From assembly GCA_020442665.1 (NCBI GenBank), contig JAGRJP010000008.1, positions 1 through 36,351 of the forward strand: a stretch of DNA of 36,351 nucleotides, given 5' to 3'. Positions 3,848 through 16,433 of the stretch are shown in pieces. Below the pieces are notes generated by a model. That model saw only the letters and a list, made by a program, of their open reading frames with translations, did no database searches and was not told the DNA's origin. How positions within the stretch are numbered: the first letter of the stretch is position 1; every line of letters begins with the position of its first letter. A program made the position numbers and the translations under genes. Source of the DNA: Lysobacterales bacterium. GTDB taxonomy: Bacteria > Pseudomonadota > Gammaproteobacteria > Xanthomonadales > Marinicellaceae.

Positions 3848-6800
3848 TTAATTACTGACTTTCATCATTGGGTCTCCCAACAAAGTCCAGCCCAATAAAA
3901 TATCGTAATAATCCGGATGGTTCGCCGCCATAGCTTGTTTGGAATATAAGATGGACTCACCAACGGTGATTCCCGATGTGGTCATATAAGGCAGCAATAA
4001 GTTTCCAAATATTGCCTCATGACCACTCTCTGCTAATGTGCTGGAACCAAGCACAGCAACCGCTCCTTTATTCTCCAAACTCATGAATGAATGAGACATG
4101 GTATTAAAGGTCGGAAGAACAAAGTAGTTATTCCAACAACCAAACTGATTCACCAAAGTCGGCTTGCCGGTATTATTTAATGCCAAAACATCGTCGTTAT
4201 CAAACAAATGCTCAAAAGACCAAGTGCTTGGGCCGGAGTGACCAAAGTAGTTTGTAATGGAAACACCGGAGTTGATATTATTAAACAATGCTTGTTGAGC
4301 ATCAGTTAATTCAATATCTCCGATATAAGCAGAGGTAGATGACCAACTACCAGGAAGAGAAGAGAGCATTGCATTAGAGTGTTGCTCAAAGGAGGAGTCT
4401 CTGTCACTAGCGAAAATAGCTGTATTGGTATATGCTCTGGAGTTATAGCTAAACATTTTATTAATCATGTTTTGCAACTCAGAAACAGTTCTCACAGGAA
4501 GCCTGCCAATTGCCAAATCCGGAATTAAGTCAGAATCAACATCAGCAAACAGTGAGTCAACAGGAGCATAAGAAATCAGACTGTCCGTTTGATAATACAT
4601 GGTCGGAATAAAGCTAATCGAACCAAGCCCAAGGTTGTCTTTATAATCATAGCTATCTGAACCCACAAGCATGACAGCACTAATATTGGAGTTGTTATAA
4701 GCATCTTTAATAAATGATTGAATGCCACGAGCATCTTTACGGAAGTTTGAATAAAGAGCATAAACATCTTCAACATTAACGACCAGAACATTCAAACCAT
4801 TATTTTGATGGGAACTAACTAAAGGAGCAAGTCCGCTGATAAAGTCCGGGTGCGAAATAACTAAGTAGTCGTATTGTTGTGACAGATCAATAGAAGAGGC
4901 TGTACTAAGTTCAATTTCAGGAGCTGAAACATTCGAGTTGCTACCTACATAGTATTTACTGTTTTCAACATAAGGAAGTGAAAGGTTGTAACCGCCATTG
5001 TCGAAAGCAATCACAGCATTAGGGAACTCATACATCTCAGAGCCATTCGTCGAATAAGCATACAAATCATCAGCCGAGAAGCCTTTGGCAACAAATCCCA
5101 GTGATTGCCCAACCTCAAAACCATTTTGGAAAATGATATCAGCAGAAACTCCATTGGTAACGATTGGAACAAAAGCCAAACCATCATTGACCGCTACGAT
5201 TTCTGAAGGATATTTCAATCTGAAATAATCGAGCAACACAAGATCATAATCAGCTCCGGTATCAGCAGGCATGATAAAGTTCAAAGAGTTTGAACCTTGA
5301 ATTTGCGAGTGAGTTAAGCTGATTGTATCACCGAATACTTTCACACCATCAGTGTAAATGTTTGAAACAACATTATTATTAATTGATACTTGTAGATGAT
5401 GATCCGGATTAAAACTATCCCAAGCAGTTCCGCCCCATGCTGAGTATTCGAGTTCAGCATCAACACCATTATTCAGAAGGCTAGGTAAAGCCAATGGAAA
5501 ACTCCAATTGCCGGTTGTTTGATAAACAAGCATTGAAGTGTTATACCAAGGGCTGTTAGCAGGGGATGCGAAAGAGTACTTCAAATCTTCAGTTACAGAA
5601 GCCTCAGACATGTAATACGCATCCGGATCAACAGTAACTAGCGAGGTGTTATTCACAGGAGCTTTGGCAAGAGAAGAGTCCAGTTTCAAAATATACACGT
5701 TTTCATCGGTGTATAATGAATCAGCAGGCTTTCCGATAAAGTCAATGTATGAATCGGGAGCAAAAGTGCTATCAGAAACTTTACGTGCAACCGCTTTATT
5801 TTCGAAAGAAACAGAAATATCACTAGCAGCCACACCATTCCAGTCAACACCGGCAGAAAGCAGGTCTTCATAAGTAATTCTTTGTAGTCCTTCAGAGCGA
5901 ACCTTTAATTTAATAAAATCAAAAGACTGAGCTAGCAAAGTTTGTCTGCTTTGTTGCAAAGTTTCGGAATTGTTAGAAATCTGAGCCCAATTAATCGGTG
6001 TGACTTGAGGAAGCTTGCCATAAGCATGGTTGACCTGAAAAGGTCCGTATTTCGCCTTCGTTCCATCAGTTTTTAGCTCTTCAATTTGGTATTGTTCAAC
6101 ACCTTTCATGGTTGATGAAATGCTATAATGATGTGGTTTGAGCGAGTTTAAACCTTTCGCACCAACAACCGAGTTATTCAATTTTTTCCAACTGTTGTTT
6201 ACCAAACCATATAAATTAAAACCAACAACTCCGGTCTCAGTTGTTGTCGAAAAATCGATTGATGTTCCCGAAGCTGAAGACAATGCTTTGCTGTAGGACA
6301 AAGTAATTGGCGTAAGTTGATCAGCACCAAAACGATAGTCTTCGACTTCTCCGGAAGAGGCTGTACCTGTTGGGCTTTCTGTAGCAAGCACCGGTTCAGC
6401 ACTATAAAAACGGCAACGAGTTTCTAAGAAATCATCTCCATTTTGACCAAATGTCGATGTACCGGGAATAGAAACAGTGATTTCATTAATTTGAGGATCC
6501 GCATTAATGTCTTGAGCTATAGATTTTTCAGTTCCATTGTCAAATACTCCATCGTTATTCCAGTCAAACCAACACGCTACATATCCATCAGTACTTGAAA
6601 CGATGTTCATCTTTGCTGTTGCGCTACCTATTTCCCAGTTTCCACTGGCGGTAATACCATCGTCATCATTATCATCATCATCTTGAGCGAATCCGGTATC
6701 GGCTGTCCAGTTTGAACCTAAACGAGCTGTTCCACCACCTTCGTGTTTTGCAATACCGTAAGAGCTGGCTAAATCACCATAGTCTGCAGGAAGTAAAGTT

Positions 6801-9800
6801 GCTCCAGTATCATAGGTAGCAATAACACACCATTGATTCAATGTTCCTTGAATGATATTGTCGTTATCCGAAACATTCATTGTCCAGTTTCCGTTAAGGG
6901 CTTCGGAATCAAAAGCAGATAATGGGTTGTTTGGTGAAAATGGACCGGCTCCAATAGTTGGGTTGGTATTAGGACAAACACTCTCAACCGGTGTAGCAGA
7001 TTCATCATCAAGAACTGTGTCAATATTGTCTCTACTACACCCACTACCAGAACTCGGGTAACCAGGCCTGTCAATAACATCAACAGAGGTGGTTGCTGGA
7101 CTGGTAACACCAACAATAAGGTCGCCAACCCAAGTATGCGAAATATCTACGCTAATATTGATATCAGTTATAGTTCCTGTTGTAGCAATATTTAAAATAT
7201 TATCAACACCGTTAGGGTCGTTATCAGGAATAGTTAGGTTCAAGTTGGCAGCAGAACAAAATGTATCAGTAGCAACCCCTGCTCCTCCAACTGTTTCAAA
7301 CGCAGCCATAGCATAATCTGTTGAACCACAAGAGTCATTTGCTCTTACCCTCCAGTAATAAACAGTACTGTCTGATAATGAAGCACCAGGCGTGTAGCTG
7401 TTTGTACCAACATTAGCCGAAGAAACGATATTTGAGAATGCGGGATCAGTTGCAATATCAATGTCATAACTGCTGGCTCCTGATACAGCTGTCCAAGAAA
7501 AAGAAGTGTTGATTGCAATACCTGTACTGCCGTCCGTTGGAGAAGAAAGAGTCGGAGCAGATATTGGAAAAATCACATTCAAGTTGACATCAACAGATTT
7601 TGTAACTGCGCCTGTGCCGGATGCTTCAACGGTAATCGTGTTTAAACCTGCAGAAGCTGTATTGTCAACACTAAGATTTAGAATAGAGTCTGTTCCGGGA
7701 GCTGCTGCCGGTACAAAATTGTTAAGACTAAAACCACCACTAATACCTACGGGTAACGCCGGATTGAATGCCAGGTTGACATTGTTACTATAACCACCGA
7801 GAGCGGCCGTTGTTAGTGTTACCGGAGTGATTGCAGTTGGTCCGGGATTGACGCAAACATCCTGGCTTAAATTAGTGCCAGAAAAAGAAATACCAGGGTC
7901 TGTCACACAAGTAACAGTAACGTTAGTTATATTATTACCGGAGATACTGCCTGACCCGTTTGTCACAGAACACGTTTGATTTGGGGAACCTGGTTGAGTT
8001 AATACAGTTACTGAATAAGGGTCTAAATCATCAAGGTAAGTTGAGAAAGTGAATGACCCATCTGCTGCAATCGCTAAATCATCCCCTCCATTGTTTTGAA
8101 GAACCAAGCCGCTTCCCAATAGACCAGACACCGTTCCACCAACAGTAAACCCGGGAGGACAATGGTTTCCGGTATCAACAAAACTTTCAAATTCTAAACG
8201 CCAACCATTAATAGACCCCCCATCCTGGTTATAAGGATCTTTGACATTAAGTGTCCAAACACCATCGGCACTTTCGCCATCAAAAGCACTCAATGGATTT
8301 GTTGGTTGATAAGTTCCCCCGTTACCAGTTGGGCTACAAGGCCAGGCAGCTCCAGAACCTTCATCATCTAAGCTGATATCAATATTGTTGTTGCCTCCAC
8401 ATAGGTTATTATCTGCCTGACTCATTAGAATAACAGAGGTTCCTTGCGGAGACGTCAAAACAACCTCCAAATCGCCAACATAAGAGTGTGTAATATCCAG
8501 GTTTAATAAATTAATGTCGTTAATTACACCAACACCAGCAACATTGAGAGTCGACAAATGGTCGACAGGTGTAGCGGTTGTTGGAATTGTTATAGGAACA
8601 TCGGTACTTGCAATCGGAGCTAATGTTTGAACTCCTGGAGTATAAAACCTAAATGCTGTTGAAGCAGACCCCGTTCCACACAAGTTCGCTGGTTTGACCC
8701 GCCAATAATAACAAGACTCAGTAGCTAGAGTTCCTGATGTTGCAGATAATCCGCTAACAACAGTAGTAAAATCAACACTACCAAATAATGGATCGTCATC
8801 AACCTCAACAACGTAGCTTTGAGCGCCACTTAAGGAAGCCCATGATAGATTTGGTGTCCTAGAACCAGCAAAACTATCATTTGCCGGGGTTGATAGTGTT
8901 GGAGAAGACGCTAATGTATCAAATAAGTTTAATGTCAGTGTTTCGGTATCTGTTTTGCTTCCACCGTCTGTGGCAGTCACCGTCAAAATATGAGCTCCAG
9001 AACTCGCAGCAGACAAGTTTGTAAACTGTAAGGTCGTAATTGAAGGATAAGTAATAGGAGAAGCTGAAAAGTTACAATTGGCTCCAGACGGACACCCAGA
9101 TACAGACATTGTTGTTGGGGTGTTAAAGTCGTAACTAATCGCTAAATCATAATCGGTGGTGTTATCGACTTTACAAACATTAATGTCGTGTTCGGTGCTG
9201 TAATCATCAAACAACAGAATATTATGCTCTTTACAACCGGGAAGTTTGAATGAACCAATGTAAGTCTTCCAGTTATTTGATTCAATATATTCGGTTGTAA
9301 ACCAAAAAGTACAATTATCACTTGGGTCTACATCCATAGATGCATAATCGCCCCATCTTCCGGAGGAGTGCGTTTGTGCTGATAAGCCGTTAAACATTGT
9401 AGCTTCAGACTCCATTTCTCCTAAATCGTCAAGGTCATTGTCATGAACAGTATATCTGATAGATGGATATATTGAACTGGATGTAACAGAATAGCCAACC
9501 CCTATATTTTGTGATTCATCCATAGCTATACTTGGGGAAAAACGGTGTGTACTATCGGGAGCATAGGTTCCCTGTTGTCTGATATTCCAACCTGTATCGT
9601 ATGTGTGTTTTCTTAACTCAAACCATCTTGGAGCTGTGTGCTTGCCCGGAGAGGCAACAGCATTGACACCCCAGACACCAACTAATGAGCCGTAAATACC
9701 AAAGTTTCTGTATTGAAACCTTTGTTGAGGCCACCAGGAATTACTATCAATCAGAGTAGTGGAACCAAGCTGGGGAATACAGTTTCCAACGAAAAACCCA

Positions 9801-11341
9801 CAAACGGTCCAGTTAAAATCAACCAAACCTTCCGCGCTGGTAATAGCCTGTAAGGTAAAAGTAGTATTTGCAGGGGTATTCCAGTCCACATCGAAAGAAT
9901 ATATATCAAGACTATCATTTGCCGGTGATGGGTTAAAATAACCATCTTGAGCATCTCTGATAGTATAAAAATATCCAGGTTCATCTGCCGGAGGCGGAAG
10001 AGCTCCATCATTATCAGCAGGAACAAGAAGGTTTTGAAAGCTTTGAAAATATTGAGATGTACGAGCAGGATTTCCAAGCAACATGTTTTCTCTGTCCATA
10101 GCATAAACATCATACTGGTTAGCAGCACCCGAGTTTGTTCCCATAAAGTATGCATTGTTATTCGTTGCCGGCCACACACCGAGTTTGTAATAATCCGGAA
10201 ACCGCTGTGTGACCAGAGAGTATAAATAATATGAACCGGTAGGGTCATTTGTTTGAGATACAGCAAAGCATACTTGTTCAGGAGAGCCTCCGACAGCGAA
10301 CTGGGTTAAGACCCAACGATCGGCCTGTTCATCATACAAAGCAATAGCATCTCCAGAGTTGTCGGACTCACAACGACCACCAAACCCAGACCATAAAGTA
10401 TTGGTATTAAAAGGACCTGCCAGAGACGTTCCGTCTTTAGCAAAAACTTGTGTTGTAGAGTTAACTTGTTGAACATAGTGATTGGGCCCTACAGCACCCT
10501 CGGTATCAGGAGGTAAATATCCGCTTATATTAGGCATTCCCTGAAACCCTCCAGAGGGAGTGGGAGTTTGTAGTGAGCCTGCGAATACATTCTGTGATTT
10601 TATAGCCAGAATATCGTCATGTGTTGGGGCTATAGTACCGAATCTGCGACCTCTTTCGTCATAAAGGTTTTCATGACGAGGCCTGTTCACTTCCTGTGAG
10701 TCATCAAACGGTTGTATACCAGCTACAGGAAGGTGGGTTACAGGTAAACTGGATTTAGGGCCTATTAAAGGAACTTCATAAGGGTGAGAAATCACATTTT
10801 TAGCAGAAATATATATATCAGATGAAAGAGTTGCAGCTTGAAAAGAGGATACAGTAGAACGTCTTTTATAACCTTTCCAATGAGAGCCATCATCACCGGA
10901 CTTTTTGCCTTGTAAAAATGCTGAAGACTCCTGAGAGTGACCGGCAGGAAGAATACCAACTTTAGGATATAATGCCTTGCCATCAACAACAACCTGCATT
11001 TCAACAGCGGGGTTGTTTGCAAAAAAAGCCTGCAACGACTTAAATTCTGAGTCTCTATCTCTTTTCCCAGACCCCAAAGAGAGTTTTGCTGTGTTATCTT
11101 CTATCGAAACTTTTTTGAATGATTCAGAATAACTGCTACCTTGACTACCTTTTGCAAAATATTTAACTAAGACTTTGTGTTTCTTTTGACTTGAAAAATT
11201 TTGCTTTTCAGAAAAAATGGCGTTGTATTCCAGAGTTTTCGGAAAGTGTTTTAATTCATTGAGAACACCCTCATTTTGACTGCTCGCAGCAAAAGAAGTG
11301 AAGACCAAAAAAGATAAAAAAAGACGAGTGCTGTGTTTCAT
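3848..11341 (-). CDS. Giant exported multidomain protein with C-terminal C25 (gingipain-type) cysteine peptidase
   Basis: Predicted secreted protease of 2497 residues. Visible order: signal peptide (MKHSTRLFLSFLVFTSFAASS); unassigned N-terminal part; a repeat/propeller-like region about 260-700 with the motif PPDTEGAVGPNHYVQ; Ig-like segment about 700-800; fibronectin-type domain about 811-900; P/Homo-B domain about 905-1058; Ig-like spacers; second fibronectin-type domain about 1258-1350 and second P domain about 1357-1505; GEVED domain about 1517-1667, rich in Asp (DDDDNDDDG); linker; C25 peptidase about 2157-2497. The putative catalytic pair is His2368 in YFGHSG and Cys2402 in FGCWNN. I chose the ATG at 11341 because AGGGAG lies about 8 nt upstream and the signal peptide begins there; the GTG at 11359 lies within the ribosome-binding site region. 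It ends right after the peptidase, with no recognisable C-terminal sorting tail. It is a single gene, convergent with the symporter operon. Confidence 0.88.
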   Translation of the reverse strand: MKHSTRLFLSFLVFTSFAASSQNEGVLNELKHFPKTLEYNAIFSEKQNFSSQKKHKVLVKYFAKGSQGSSYSESFKKVSIEDNTAKLSLGSGKRDRDSEFKSLQAFFANNPAVEMQVVVDGKALYPKVGILPAGHSQESSAFLQGKKSGDDGSHWKGYKRRSTVSSFQAATLSSDIYISAKNVISHPYEVPLIGPKSSLPVTHLPVAGIQPFDDSQEVNRPRHENLYDERGRRFGTIAPTHDDILAIKSQNVFAGSLQTPTPSGGFQGMPNISGYLPPDTEGAVGPNHYVQQVNSTTQVFAKDGTSLAGPFNTNTLWSGFGGRCESDNSGDAIALYDEQADRWVLTQFAVGGSPEQVCFAVSQTNDPTGSYYLYSLVTQRFPDYYKLGVWPATNNNAYFMGTNSGAANQYDVYAMDRENMLLGNPARTSQYFQSFQNLLVPADNDGALPPPADEPGYFYTIRDAQDGYFNPSPANDSLDIYSFDVDWNTPANTTFTLQAITSAEGLVDFNWTVCGFFVGNCIPQLGSTTLIDSNSWWPQQRFQYRNFGIYGSLVGVWGVNAVASPGKHTAPRWFELRKHTYDTGWNIRQQGTYAPDSTHRFSPSIAMDESQNIGVGYSVTSSSIYPSIRYTVHDNDLDDLGEMESEATMFNGLSAQTHSSGRWGDYASMDVDPSDNCTFWFTTEYIESNNWKTYIGSFKLPGCKEHNILLFDDYSTEHDINVCKVDNTTDYDLAISYDFNTPTTMSVSGCPSGANCNFSASPITYPSITTLQFTNLSAASSGAHILTVTATDGGSKTDTETLTLNLFDTLASSPTLSTPANDSFAGSRTPNLSWASLSGAQSYVVEVDDDPLFGSVDFTTVVSGLSATSGTLATESCYYWRVKPANLCGTGSASTAFRFYTPGVQTLAPIASTDVPITIPTTATPVDHLSTLNVAGVGVINDINLLNLDITHSYVGDLEVVLTSPQGTSVILMSQADNNLCGGNNNIDISLDDEGSGAAWPCSPTGNGGTYQPTNPLSAFDGESADGVWTLNVKDPYNQDGGSINGWRLEFESFVDTGNHCPPGFTVGGTVSGLLGSGLVLQNNGGDDLAIAADGSFTFSTYLDDLDPYSVTVLTQPGSPNQTCSVTNGSGSISGNNITNVTVTCVTDPGISFSGTNLSQDVCVNPGPTAITPVTLTTAALGGYSNNVNLAFNPALPVGISGGFSLNNFVPAAAPGTDSILNLSVDNTASAGLNTITVEASGTGAVTKSVDVNLNVIFPISAPTLSSPTDGSTGIAINTSFSWTAVSGASSYDIDIATDPAFSNIVSSANVGTNSYTPGASLSDSTVYYWRVRANDSCGSTDYAMAAFETVGGAGVATDTFCSAANLNLTIPDNDPNGVDNILNIATTGTITDINISVDISHTWVGDLIVGVTSPATTSVDVIDRPGYPSSGSGCSRDNIDTVLDDESATPVESVCPNTNPTIGAGPFSPNNPLSAFDSEALNGNWTMNVSDNDNIIQGTLNQWCVIATYDTGATLLPADYGDLASSYGIAKHEGGGTARLGSNWTADTGFAQDDDDNDDDGITASGNWEIGSATAKMNIVSSTDGYVACWFDWNNDGVFDNGTEKSIAQDINADPQINEITVSIPGTSTFGQNGDDFLETRCRFYSAEPVLATESPTGTASSGEVEDYRFGADQLTPITLSYSKALSSASGTSIDFSTTTETGVVGFNLYGLVNNSWKKLNNSVVGAKGLNSLKPHHYSISSTMKGVEQYQIEELKTDGTKAKYGPFQVNHAYGKLPQVTPINWAQISNNSETLQQSRQTLLAQSFDFIKLKVRSEGLQRITYEDLLSAGVDWNGVAASDISVSFENKAVARKVSDSTFAPDSYIDFIGKPADSLYTDENVYILKLDSSLAKAPVNNTSLVTVDPDAYYMSEASVTEDLKYSFASPANSPWYNTSMLVYQTTGNWSFPLALPSLLNNGVDAELEYSAWGGTAWDSFNPDHHLQVSINNNVVSNIYTDGVKVFGDTISLTHSQIQGSNSLNFIMPADTGADYDLVLLDYFRLKYPSEIVAVNDGLAFVPIVTNGVSADIIFQNGFEVGQSLGFVAKGFSADDLYAYSTNGSEMYEFPNAVIAFDNGGYNLSLPYVENSKYYVGSNSNVSAPEIELSTASSIDLSQQYDYLVISHPDFISGLAPLVSSHQNNGLNVLVVNVEDVYALYSNFRKDARGIQSFIKDAYNNSNISAVMLVGSDSYDYKDNLGLGSISFIPTMYYQTDSLISYAPVDSLFADVDSDLIPDLAIGRLPVRTVSELQNMINKMFSYNSRAYTNTAIFASDRDSSFEQHSNAMLSSLPGSWSSTSAYIGDIELTDAQQALFNNINSGVSITNYFGHSGPSTWSFEHLFDNDDVLALNNTGKPTLVNQFGCWNNYFVLPTFNTMSHSFMSLENKGAVAVLGSSTLAESGHEAIFGNLLLPYMTTSGITVGESILYSKQAMAANHPDYYDILLGWTLLGDPMMKVSN

Positions 11342-11574
11342 AATAAATCTCCCTGACACCTTGTATTGCCAAGCTAAAAAAACTGTTTGTGTATTTTAGC
11401 AGTATCTAATATGCAAATGATAAAGCAATTCGGGAAAAAAAAGTGCCGATAAAAGTAAATTTTTGAAACAAAAGTAGGTTTATGGTTGTTTTTTTGCAAA
11501 AAAACTTTTTGTGACAAATAAAAGTAAGTTCGTTTCGTGGTTTATAAAGCTGGAAAGAACACAGGTTTTAATTT

Positions 11575-14114: not shown

Positions 14115-14293
14115 GTTACTTTGTTGCCACCCAACAAAGTAACCAAAAAAGGGTGCCCCGAACTCTCAGCCGATGGCTTCCCTCCCTATTTTCTCAAATT
14201 TGGCGTTTGCAAAAACTCGCATTGCAAGCAATGCTCTGACACTTGCAAACATATTTCCAAATTTTCAAAAATATCTCGGTGAGAGTTAAGGGG
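14115..14293 (+). repeat. Hairpin element with terminal inverted repeats, copy 1
   Basis: Two parts. 14115-14143 is a perfect 12-bp stem (GTTACTTTGTTG / CAACAAAGTAAC) with a 5-nt loop. 14156-14293 is a 138-bp element whose ends are imperfect inverted repeats (CCCCGAACTCTCAGCCGA and the complement of CGGTGAGAGTTAAGGGG). Nested complementary segments inside it (ATTTTCTCAAATTTGG with CCAAATTTTCAAAAAT; GTTTGC with GCAAAC; GCATTGC with GCAATGC) would let almost the whole element fold as one long imperfect hairpin. A second copy lies inverted at 16252-16390, about 90% identical by eye. It encodes nothing convincing; MITE-like in form, with no transposase in the window. Confidence 0.85.
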
Positions 14294-14299
14294 AGTTTT

Positions 14300-14403: not shown

Positions 14404-14600
14404 CGTAATGCTGGACTTAATTTCAGCATCTCCTTAGCCACCGTCTTGCCTGCGAAGGCAGGCATCTCTTCAAACCATCGTGATTTCAATTGATACTCGT
14501 AAAAACTTCTCCTCTTGAGAGGAGATACAGATGTGTGTTCTCTATATCAAAACCAACCACCGTCATCTCGACTAAGCGAAGCGCATGGAGAGATCTCGTT
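14404..14600 (+). repeat. Mosaic intergenic repeat cluster (C-like, D, B and E modules)
   Basis: Contains in order: a diverged C module (14404-14434, CGTAATGCTGG...CAGCATCTCCT); a palindromic module near 14442-14468 (GCCTGCGAAGGCAGGC core, ending ATCTC); a B unit with its left flank (14479-14529), the 21-bp core identical to the other two copies; and 14561-14596, beginning CGTCATCTCGACTAAGCGAA and ending GAGATCTC. Each module runs from a CGTCAT-like start to an ATCTC-like end around a different inverted repeat. 14600-14760 is AT-rich and unassigned except for GCGTATATT near 14707, which echoes the cassette-edge repeat at 14764. Confidence 0.75.
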
Positions 14601-14763
14601 AATATCATAAACATTTCTATAGCGTTTCTCTCAATCTCATACTAGAATAAAGAAATCCCAACCACTCTTATCAAATTTCAACTCAAAAGTCTGGTTAGGG
14701 AGCCGGGCGTATATTCTTTATAAAACTGTAATATATGTATTTTTGTAATTCTTGGTATGCGTA

Positions 14764-14794
14764 ATTGCGTATATTAAGATGTTGTGCTTAATTA
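14764..14794 (+). repeat. Left arm of inverted repeat framing the Mrr-type gene
   Basis: Reads ATTGCGTATA, then 7 variable bases, then GTTGTGCTTA and ATTA. The reverse complement of 16058-16087 gives ATTGCGTATA, 6 variable bases, GTTGTGCTTA and GTTA, so two 10-bp blocks are identical. The arm ends 9 bases before the ATG of the nuclease gene and the other arm begins in its stop codon. This is the boundary expected of a one-gene insertion, though no target-site duplication is obvious. Confidence 0.75.
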
Positions 14795-14803
14795 AAAAAG
14801 AAC

Positions 14804-16060
14804 ATGAAGAAATTGTCATTCAAGGAAGCAGCTATTAAGATATTAAAGGAAGCAGAAGAACCGCTTTCAGCAAAAGAAATTACTGAAATTGCCTTGGATG
14901 AGGAGTTAATCGAAACTTCAGGAGCAACTCCGGATGCTACAATGGCTGCTCAACTTTATACGGATATCAGTAACAATACCTCTTCTAAATTCAAAAAAGT
15001 GGGAAGAGGCATGTTCGCTTTAAAGAAGCAGACAGAATCAGCAAAATCACCACTATTGGCAATTCAGAACCAGAACGAATTGGTCAAGAAGAAATTGATT
15101 GAAAAGATTCAAGAAATGGATCCTTTTCAATTCGAATATTTAACTGCTGAATTATTACGCAAAATTGGTTACGAGAATGTAGATGTTACCAAACGTAGTG
15201 GAGACAAAGGAATTGATGTAGTCGGAAACCTGACAGTTGGAGGACTGACTAATGTTAAAACCGTCATCCAAGTCAAGCGATATAAAACAGGGAACAACAT
15301 CTCTGGCAAATACATCACTCAATTAAGAGGAAGTGCTGAAGTTGACCAAAGGGGATTGATTATCACTACATCTGATTTTACAAAAGATGCTATCAATGAA
15401 TCGAAGGCCACTAATAAAATGCCGGTTGCATTGGTGAATGGTGAGAAGTTGATTGATTTACTTTTCAAATACAAGGTTGGTGTTAAAGAAGACATTGTTA
15501 GTGTTTATTCAATAGACACCGAACTTTTTGAAAATGAATTAAGTGATTCTACATTAAAAAGTAGCGAGAACAAAAGTCGTTCTATTTGGCCGTTACCTGG
15601 AGGTGTTTACTCTTATGTTGAGACTCTTAATCAACTTTTAGATCGAATTGTAGAAAAGAAAAGTTCCAGAGTGGATTTAGTTGAATGGTTTGTTAAGTCG
15701 TTTGACAATGTTTCATCAAAGAAAACAGCCAATGGTTATCTAAATGTTCCAAAGAATATGGGGCTGATAGACTTTGAAAATGGTGTGTGTATTCTAACTC
15801 CTGCTGGAAATCAATATCGAAATGAAAAGGACCTTGAATTTCTTTTCCAAACAATTTCAGCAAACATTATGGCCTTTAAGGAAGTACATCAATTTCTGTT
15901 AAGCAGTCCAGAAGCAAAGTCTGAACAAGAGGTACTCGAATATATAGTCGAGAATTTTGATGTAGAATGGAGCACACTAGCACAGGTTAATTTCCGCATG
16001 CTTTGGCTAATTAATATTGGAAAAGTTGAAAAAACTGACAATGGATATAAAGGAAAATAA
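14804..16060 (+). CDS. Mrr-type restriction endonuclease with N-terminal HARE-HTH domain
   Basis: Predicted DNA-cleaving defence enzyme of 418 residues. Residues 1-76 (MKKLSFKEAAIKILKEAEEP...GRGMFALKK) match the HARE-HTH winged-helix module often fused to restriction enzymes. Residues about 95-225 form an Mrr_cat domain of the PD-(D/E)xK fold: PFQFEYLTAELLRKIGY, DKGID at 134-138 and QVK at 156-158 supply the acidic and lysine catalytic positions. Residues about 260-418 look like one or two further winged-helix segments, perhaps for target recognition. Mrr relatives cut modified DNA; specificity here cannot be read. No methyltransferase or partner gene is adjacent, which fits a modification-dependent enzyme. 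No clear Shine-Dalgarno; ATG preceded by AAAAAAGAAC. It is isolated between repeat clusters and framed by inverted repeats, suggesting transfer. Confidence 0.88.
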   Translation: MKKLSFKEAAIKILKEAEEPLSAKEITEIALDEELIETSGATPDATMAAQLYTDISNNTSSKFKKVGRGMFALKKQTESAKSPLLAIQNQNELVKKKLIEKIQEMDPFQFEYLTAELLRKIGYENVDVTKRSGDKGIDVVGNLTVGGLTNVKTVIQVKRYKTGNNISGKYITQLRGSAEVDQRGLIITTSDFTKDAINESKATNKMPVALVNGEKLIDLLFKYKVGVKEDIVSVYSIDTELFENELSDSTLKSSENKSRSIWPLPGGVYSYVETLNQLLDRIVEKKSSRVDLVEWFVKSFDNVSSKKTANGYLNVPKNMGLIDFENGVCILTPAGNQYRNEKDLEFLFQTISANIMAFKEVHQFLLSSPEAKSEQEVLEYIVENFDVEWSTLAQVNFRMLWLINIGKVEKTDNGYKGK

Positions 16061-16087
16061 CTAAGCACAACAACACCTATACGCAAT
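16058..16087 (-). repeat. Right arm of inverted repeat framing the Mrr-type gene
   Basis: Begins with the TAA stop of the nuclease gene, then CTAAGCACAAC, a variable AACACC segment and TATACGCAAT. On the minus strand it matches 14764-14794 in two 10-bp identical blocks. The stop codon being part of the repeat means the element edge and gene end coincide. Confidence 0.75.
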
Positions 16088-16127
16088 GCCCTTCGGGCCG
16101 CAACTACTCATAGCCGAGACCGTTAAT
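16061..16127 (+). other. Candidate folded recombination-site-like sequence after the nuclease gene
   Basis: From GCACAAC (16065-16071) to GTTAATA (16122-16128) the strand can fold: AAC with GTT at the outside, CTAT (16077-16080) with ATAG (16110-16113) in the middle, and GCCC-TTC-GGGC at 16088-16098. The layout recalls an integron attC site, where short outer AAC/GTT boxes surround a variable folded centre. The boxes here do not fit the usual RYYYAAC/GTTRRRY pattern well and no integron integrase is in the window, so this is a structural resemblance only. It could instead act simply as a transcription terminator remnant. Confidence 0.35.
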
Positions 16128-16143
16128 AAAACAAACACACCTC

Positions 16144-16231
16144 TGTATCTCCTCTCAAGAGGAGACTTTTTTCGAGTATCAAATGAAATCACGGAATATT
16201 GAGGAGATACTGAAATAAATTCAGTATGACG
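16144..16231 (-). repeat. Mosaic intergenic repeat unit, copy 3 (modules C and B, inverted)
   Basis: Read on the minus strand, 16231-16202 is module C (CGTCATACTGAA...TTCAGTATCTCCT, with a perfect 8-bp stem and 5-nt loop). It is followed by a linker (CGTGATTTCATTTGATACTC) shared with 14479-14508 and then module B (16164-16144), identical over 21 bases to the copies at 14079 and 14509. So the same C-linker-B unit lies on both sides of the nuclease gene in opposite orientation. Confidence 0.85.
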
Positions 16232-16251
16232 GAGTGTTTGTTATTTAAAAT

Positions 16252-16433
16252 CCCCTTAACTCTCACCGAGAAATTTTTGAAAAATTTGGAGTAAAGTTTG
16301 CAAGTGTTTGAGCATTGTTTGCAATGCGAGTTTTTGCAAACGCCAAACTTGAGAAAATAGGGAGGGAAGCCAACGGCTGAGAGTTCGGGGTGCACTTTCT
16401 TTTGGTTCGTTTTCTTTATGCAAGTAAAGAAAA
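16252..16433 (-). repeat. Hairpin element with terminal inverted repeats, copy 2 (inverted)
   Basis: 16252-16390 (139 bp) is the reverse-complement relative of 14156-14293, about 90% identical by eye, with the same CCCCTTAACTCTCACCG / CTGAGAGTTCGGGG ends and nested complementary segments. Adjacent at 16410-16433 is a perfect 9-bp stem (TTTTCTTTA / TAAAGAAAA, 6-nt loop) in the same relative place as the hairpin at 14115-14143 but with a different sequence. This pattern of conserved position with a changed, still complementary stem suggests the stem is selected for. Confidence 0.85.

What the first reader, a model, noticed from the sequence alone, without database searches (positions are those of the whole stretch)
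14764..16087. Mrr-type nuclease gene framed exactly by a ~30-bp inverted repeat: a one-gene mobile cassette?
Seen: ATTGCGTATA and GTTGTGCTTA blocks at 14764-14794 recur, inverted, at 16058-16087. One arm ends 9 nt before the ATG and the other includes the stop codon, so the unit is essentially one gene plus its edges. Known: Mrr-type enzymes are defence genes that move often. Inference: the pair marks a mobilised unit that lacks its own recombinase and would depend on one supplied in trans. A degenerate GCGTATATT at about 14707 suggests an earlier or partial site.
Basis: partly seen in the sequence, partly recalled or inferred. Interest (0 to 1): 0.72.

Follow-up and report, generated by a model that had tools for sequence, protein, structure and literature searches.

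The report
Nuclease gene as integron-type cassette
A DNA-cutting defence gene here sits in a dedicated gene-capture site of the integron kind, where a sister species carries a different gene; the enzyme that probably does the swapping looks simpler than the known integron integrase, which would matter for how bacteria trade defence and antibiotic-resistance genes.

Summary
The Mrr gene is an integron-type gene cassette (14782-16122, 1341 bp; crossovers G|TT). The "inverted repeat" is the first arm of the cassette's own attC (GCACAAC, 16065-16071), complementary to its 5' edge (GTTGTGC, 14781-14787), plus a shared recombinase-binding box.

The upstream arm ends a ~175-bp attI-like module found in several copies per genome in this gammaproteobacterial genus (Marinicella family), with different genes behind the copies. 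At three pairs of corresponding sites in close relatives the captured gene differs; in G004 a DUF3644 gene replaces Mrr.

In five related genomes the same attI lies beside a divergent 280-aa XerA-like recombinase lacking the integron-integrase-specific insertion (91 versus 133 residues between boxes I and II). This genome lacks it but has two canonical IntI genes, at least one with a different attI. Related recombinases sit beside a cassette array on a Rufibacter plasmid and beside tet(X3) in Acinetobacter.

Not shown: recombination, and which integrase acts. The window's attC folds weakly and may be immobile. New variant of a known kind.

The parts
14605..14783 (+). Orphan attI-like module of about 175-180 bp, ending at the crossover; no integrase gene beside it
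   Evidence: Recurs at G000:C132 and C197, G004:C52 and C244, and in shorter form in other genomes of the genus, with different genes behind it
14707..14715 (+).
   Evidence: Present at the same place in the G000 and G004 copies
14755..14783 (+). attI core: near-palindrome TATGCGTAATTGCGTATA followed by TTAAGAT and the crossover GTT
   Evidence: Consensus TATAnGCAATTGCGTATATTACGAYGTT over 23 sites; hairpin
14781..14787 (+). R' box GTTGTGC; crossover between G14781 and T14782; 5' edge of the cassette
   Evidence: Homology to other platform copies ends here
14782..16122 (+). Gene cassette, 1341 bp
   Evidence: Edges from comparison with G004:C52 and from R'/R'' pairing
14804..16060 (+). Mrr-type nuclease, 418 aa, HARE-HTH plus Mrr catalytic domain
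   Evidence: Pfam PF04471 2.1e-27 and PF05066 9.9e-19; PADLOC PDC-S02 1.1e-47
16065..16071 (+). R'' box GCACAAC of the cassette's own attC, exact complement of GTTGTGC at 14781-14787
16065..16128 (+). attC-like site; last base of the cassette is G16122. Weak hairpin with a 6-nt bulge, possibly chimeric
   Evidence: 16099-16125 identical to attC ends in Persicobacter and Flagellimonas plasmids; fold weak, z 0.36 with DNA energies

Best explanation
The Mrr gene is a gene cassette of an integron-like system, inserted at an orphan attI-like platform (attI without an integrase gene beside it). Proposed working: a circular cassette carrying the gene and its attC recombines, through its folded attC, with the attI-like site between G and TT. 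This puts the start codon about 20 nt behind the platform, and the cassette can later be exchanged for another. The observed inverted repeat follows from this: the cassette's R'' box pairs with its own 5' edge, because in the free circle the two are arms of one attC. The most likely integrase is the 280-aa XerA-like tyrosine recombinase found beside the same attI in related genomes, supplied in trans or since lost here. Shown by sequence: cassette edges, repeated platform, different genes at corresponding sites, recombinase next to the site in relatives. Inferred: the reaction itself, which integrase acts, and expression from the platform.
For: Platform copies in the same and related genomes all end at G|TT, with different genes behind them. 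At the orthologous locus G004:C52 (hemN flank 86% identical) a different cassette with a near-perfect attC stands in place of Mrr. Two more pairs of related loci (G000:C132/G004:C244 and G009:C73/G003:C46) also differ in the gene. 14 of 24 sites have an exact 8-nt complement of their own 5' edge within 3.5 kb; re-paired controls give a mean of 1.7 and a maximum of 9 in 5000. The 3' end of the window's attC is identical to attC ends of a Persicobacter plasmid array and a Flagellimonas cassette. The attI lies beside the XerA-like recombinase in G002, G008, G009, G010 and Marinicella pacifica, and in a Melioribacteraceae MAG. G003 has the recombinase and several platforms but no canonical IntI over the profile cut-off.
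Against: The XerA-like gene is absent from this genome (94% complete). Canonical IntI genes are present here and in most relatives, so co-occurrence cannot separate the two. The window's attC folds weakly. GTTGTGC departs from the consensus GTTRRRY. No recombination was measured.
Confidence: 0.75

Rival explanations
1. The cassette is genuine, but canonical IntI (two copies in this genome) inserted it, using the attI-like module as a target; the XerA-like gene is only a neighbour of such sites.
For: Two IntI genes pass the TIGR02249 cut-off in this genome, one with a cassette and attC beside it. IntI is known to use alternative sites such as attG (mentioned in PMC12901181).
Against: The attI of the IntI on C7 does not contain the TATACGCAATTGCGTATA core, and no such core lies near the IntI loci scanned. 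Its attC is of another type. The XerA-like gene lies about 80 bp from the crossover in all five genomes where the contig covers it. G003 has platforms and the XerA-like gene without a full IntI.
Confidence: 0.17
2. A relic: once a mobile cassette, now fixed, since the attC is damaged or chimeric and no cognate integrase is present.
For: Weak attC fold. Its 5' half resembles the site before, and its 3' half the site after, the dfr-like gene of Flagellimonas. The XerA-like gene is absent. Not exclusive with the best explanation, which concerns how the gene arrived.
Against: With RNA energies 19 outer pairs form, and natural attCs vary widely in stability. An integrase could come from other cells or plasmids.
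Confidence: 0.35
3. A pdif module: a gene between two inverted XerC/XerD sites of about 28 bp, moved by the host XerCD.
For: Arms with two blocks of about 10 nt and a 6-7 nt centre, inverted, around one gene; CGTATA resembles the XerC half of pdif sites (recalled from general knowledge). Such modules are described in Acinetobacter (PMC12907356, listed).
Against: Breakpoints lie at G|TT and after the whole attC, not in the centre of two equal sites. The ATTGCGTATA block is not mirrored behind other cassettes of the set. The sequence beyond the downstream arm travels with cassettes in other phyla. A dedicated recombinase lies beside the site.
Confidence: 0.04
4. Terminal inverted repeats of a transposon or MITE-like element carrying the gene.
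For: Inverted arms around one gene; dispersed intergenic repeats nearby.
Against: No target-site duplication outside the arms. Only the 5' arm recurs, always followed by a different gene. The nearby dispersed repeats (14501-14550 / 16123-16172) are a separate family.
Confidence: 0.01

Closest known systems
Integrons with IntI, attI and attC (mobile and sedentary chromosomal)
   Same: Single genes bordered by attC, insertion at attI between G and TT, R''/R' complementarity, exchangeable genes, arrays in one orientation
   Different: Likely integrase is XerA-like and lacks the IntI-specific insertion; attI copies without integrase are dispersed over the genome; core is GTT with variable bases after it rather than strict GTTRRRY
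CALIN: cassettes without a neighbouring integrase (PMC9668308)
   Same: attC-bearing cassette without an integrase in cis
   Different: Here the insertion platform (attI-like) itself is present and repeated; a CALIN is defined by clusters of attC, this is a single cassette
attG insertions by IntI (secondary genomic sites)
   Same: Cassette outside an integrase-bearing integron
   Different: The target is a conserved ~175-bp module shared by many sites, not an arbitrary sequence
attC-like tails of aph(3')-IVb in Riemerella anatipestifer (PMC13148043)
   Same: Gene taken up without homology together with a short 5' leader and a 140-bp 3' tail that folds like attC
   Different: No attI or recombinase was named there; a link to this family is my inference
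pdif modules of Acinetobacter
   Same: Gene bordered by inverted Xer-type boxes
   Different: Breakpoints, long 3' site and dedicated recombinase do not fit

Membership tests
Integron gene cassette | Cassette edge at G|TT of a recombination site | tested here: met
   Homology among platform copies ends at G|TT; G004 comparison
Integron gene cassette | R'' of the attC complementary to the cassette's own 5' edge | tested here: met
   GTTGTGC / GCACAAC in the window; 14 of 24 sites against a control mean of 1.7
Integron gene cassette | attC folds into a hairpin with extrahelical bases | tested here: inconclusive
   Window weak (-5.1 kcal/mol, z 0.36); G004 cassette strong (-14.4, z -3.8)
Integron gene cassette | Core sites of the form GTTRRRY / RYYYAAC | tested here: not met
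   GTT is constant but the next bases vary (GTTGTGC here; GTTACCC, GTTGCGG, GTTTCCT elsewhere); hence 'integron-type', not classical
Integron gene cassette | Same site holds different genes in relatives | tested here: met
   Three pairs of corresponding loci
Complete integron (IntI + attI + attC) | Integrase gene beside attI at this locus | tested here: not met
   Neighbours are a zinc peptidase and a HemN-like gene
IntI integron integrase (for the XerA-like protein of relatives) | IntI-specific insertion and profile match | tested here: not met
   TIGR02249 below cut-off, NF040815 XerA above; 91 versus 133 residues between boxes I and II
IntI integron integrase (for the XerA-like protein of relatives) | Recombines folded single-stranded attC | not testable with these tools
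   Needs an assay
pdif module | Two equal inverted sites with exchange in their centre | tested here: not met
   Breakpoints differ
Mrr-type restriction endonuclease | Mrr_cat domain | tested here: met
   PF04471 2.1e-27 over the full profile
Mrr-type restriction endonuclease | Cuts methylated DNA | not testable with these tools
   Needs an assay

The most novel reading that the evidence does not exclude
A second kind of integron exists: a XerA-like integrase without the IntI-specific insertion serves attC cassettes, an attI beside it, and several dispersed stand-alone attI platforms that hold single genes, often of defence type. Relatives of it on Bacteroidota and Acinetobacter plasmids move tet(X) and other resistance cassettes.
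Probability: 0.6. Interest if true: 0.85.

Novelty: new variant of a known kind. Interest (0 to 1): 0.68.

Why it matters
Published work holds that integrases gained the ability to recombine folded attC sites by acquiring the I2 helix (PMC7790495). A recombinase family without the IntI-specific insertion that lies beside attI and cassettes makes that claim directly testable. Such systems would escape detection that requires the IntI-specific profile (method described in PMC9668308). The same cassette logic fits tet(X) genes and the unexplained homology-free gene uptake in Riemerella (PMC13148043). Dispersed integrase-free attI platforms would be a new way to spread cassettes over a chromosome.

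Tried and rejected
Transposon ends: no duplication, and only the 5' arm recurs. pdif module: see rivals. A first pattern search with a 9-nt gap instead of 7 found only chance-level matches and was replaced by alignment-based searches. Rfam: no match in the window. Promoter scan of the module: none found; TTGCCC-N17-TACAAT is visible by eye in G003/G009 copies, not convincingly in the window. The AlphaFold model of the XerA-like protein was poor (pLDDT 59.8, pTM 0.39) and was not used. My first guess that the host is a Bacteroidota was wrong: it is in the Marinicella family. A defence bias of orphan platforms (6 of 16 first genes, against 0 of 5 beside the integrase) is too small a sample to claim. 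G010:C122 looked like an empty site, but the contig ends too soon. No plasmid carries a close relative of the whole Mrr protein (best 36-40% over the catalytic part), so the donor is unknown.

Full report
What is there. Between them lies a 418-aa gene with a HARE-HTH and an Mrr catalytic domain (PADLOC PDC-S02). It has no ortholog in the other 32 genomes searched of the family. Taken alone, the inverted repeat is only about 1-2% likely by chance, so related loci had to decide.

The upstream arm is the end of a repeated platform. The last 175-180 bp before the crossover recur at G000:C132 and C197 in the same genome and at G004:C52 and C244 in a sister species; shorter matching ends occur in other genomes of the genus. 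Homology ends at ...GTATATTAnGAT G|TT, and a different gene starts there. Genes behind such copies include an AAA ATPase, a DUF3644 protein, a TIR-TM protein, an SRA/PvuRts1I-like enzyme, a PD-Lambda-5-like protein, a C5 DNA methylase, a HAD hydrolase and several unknowns.

The downstream arm is the first half of an attC-like site. Window 16099-16125 is identical to the 3' end of recombination sites that lie between same-strand genes on a Persicobacter plasmid, and to the site behind a dihydrofolate-reductase-like gene in Flagellimonas. In integron cassettes the R'' box of the attC pairs with the cassette's own 5' edge, since the two are arms of one attC in the free circle (established knowledge). 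Here GCACAAC pairs with GTTGTGC. The second mirrored block (ATTGCGTATA) I read as the outer binding box shared by this attC and the attI-like site (inference).

Test on other copies. Of 24 sites of this type, 14 have an exact 8-nt complement of their own 5' edge within 3.5 kb downstream. Re-pairing edges and loci gives a mean of 1.7 and a maximum of 9 in 5000. Several sites without a match are cut by a locus end. Many of the matched ones are followed by long hairpins on the bottom strand.

Corresponding loci. G004:C52 is the same locus: hemN at 86% on one side, the upstream flank at 75% on the other. Instead of Mrr it has a 1203-bp cassette starting G|TTGGCATT, with a DUF3644-type gene whose reading frame is interrupted. 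It ends AATGCCAACACGGTTTATATGCC...GGCATATAAATGAGACCG|TTCAGCG, a strong attC hairpin (z -3.8). The flank behind it starts about 95 bp further in than in the window, where a copy of a dispersed repeat lies in between. G000:C132 / G004:C244 and G009:C73 / G003:C46 are two more pairs of related loci with different genes. All three pairs compared differ in the captured gene.

The integrase. In G002, G008, G009, G010 and Marinicella pacifica the same attI lies with its crossover about 80 bp from the start of a divergent 280-aa tyrosine recombinase. On the far side of the attI, G008, G009, G010 and M. pacifica have a gene and an attC-like site. In M. pacifica that site is of the window's 3' type and its R'' has one mismatch. 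The recombinase passes the NCBIfam XerA profile and fails the integron-integrase profile. It has 91 residues between boxes I and II, where canonical IntI of the same genus has 133. It forms a clade (100/99) with proteins from Calditrichota and Melioribacteraceae/Ignavibacteriales MAGs, separate from IntI (100/100) and from two Xer-type proteins of this genome. A Melioribacteraceae MAG has the same attI beside it. This genome, G004 and G005 have platforms but no such gene; G004 is only 74% complete. This genome does have two canonical IntI genes, one beside a cassette with another attI and attC.

Wider occurrence. On a Rufibacter plasmid a related recombinase is followed by a cassette array with clear attCs. 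In Acinetobacter the 'xerD' next to tet(X3) is of the same short type, and the sequence between them, TATACGCCATTTGGCGTATAGCCACTT|GTTATG, has the attI layout. tet(X) genes in Empedobacter, Riemerella, Myroides, Bacteroides and Acinetobacter share a 5' edge at GTTATG(T/G)GCC with different sequence before it, and those of one Riemerella, the Myroides and the Bacteroides plasmid carry the complementary GGCACATAAC behind the gene.

Limits. No recombination was measured. Which integrase acts is inferred. The window's attC is weak and may be chimeric. How attI platforms multiply within a genome is unexplained. The held open-access literature gave no account of a XerA-type integron, but most subscription papers and all preprints are outside it. 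The nearest statement is the attC-like tail of aph(3')-IVb in Riemerella (PMC13148043).

Verdict. Observation confirmed; interpretation right in spirit, wrong in kind. An integron-type cassette in an orphan attI, most likely served by an integrase without the IntI-specific insertion: a new variant of a known kind.

Noticed in passing
L174:5700-7130; L181-L185: tet(X) genes in Acinetobacter and Bacteroidota plasmids start at the same G|TTATG edge with different upstream sequence; several have a complementary attC arm behind the gene, and in Acinetobacter an attI-like sequence lies between 'xerD' and tet(X3).
   Followed up: partly
L182:750-900; L185:1640-1780: aadS and a class D beta-lactamase gene on Riemerella plasmids are followed by attC-like palindromes.
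   Followed up: no
G000:C7 (L067:5927-9600) and G000:C150 (L068:25-1131): The genome holds two canonical integron integrase genes; the C7 copy has a cassette with a different attI and attC type.
   Followed up: partly
window 14501-14550 and 16123-16172, 14141-14298 and 16247-16407: Inverted copies of dispersed intergenic repeats flank the cassette; dozens of copies occur in this genome and in G004.
   Followed up: no
window 3848-11359, minus strand: A 2503-aa open reading frame, not examined.
   Followed up: no
L051:9150-10030: Flagellimonas plasmid: a dfr-like gene between two attC-like sites whose halves resemble the two halves of the window's attC, next to a XerA-like recombinase and erm(F).
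   Followed up: partly
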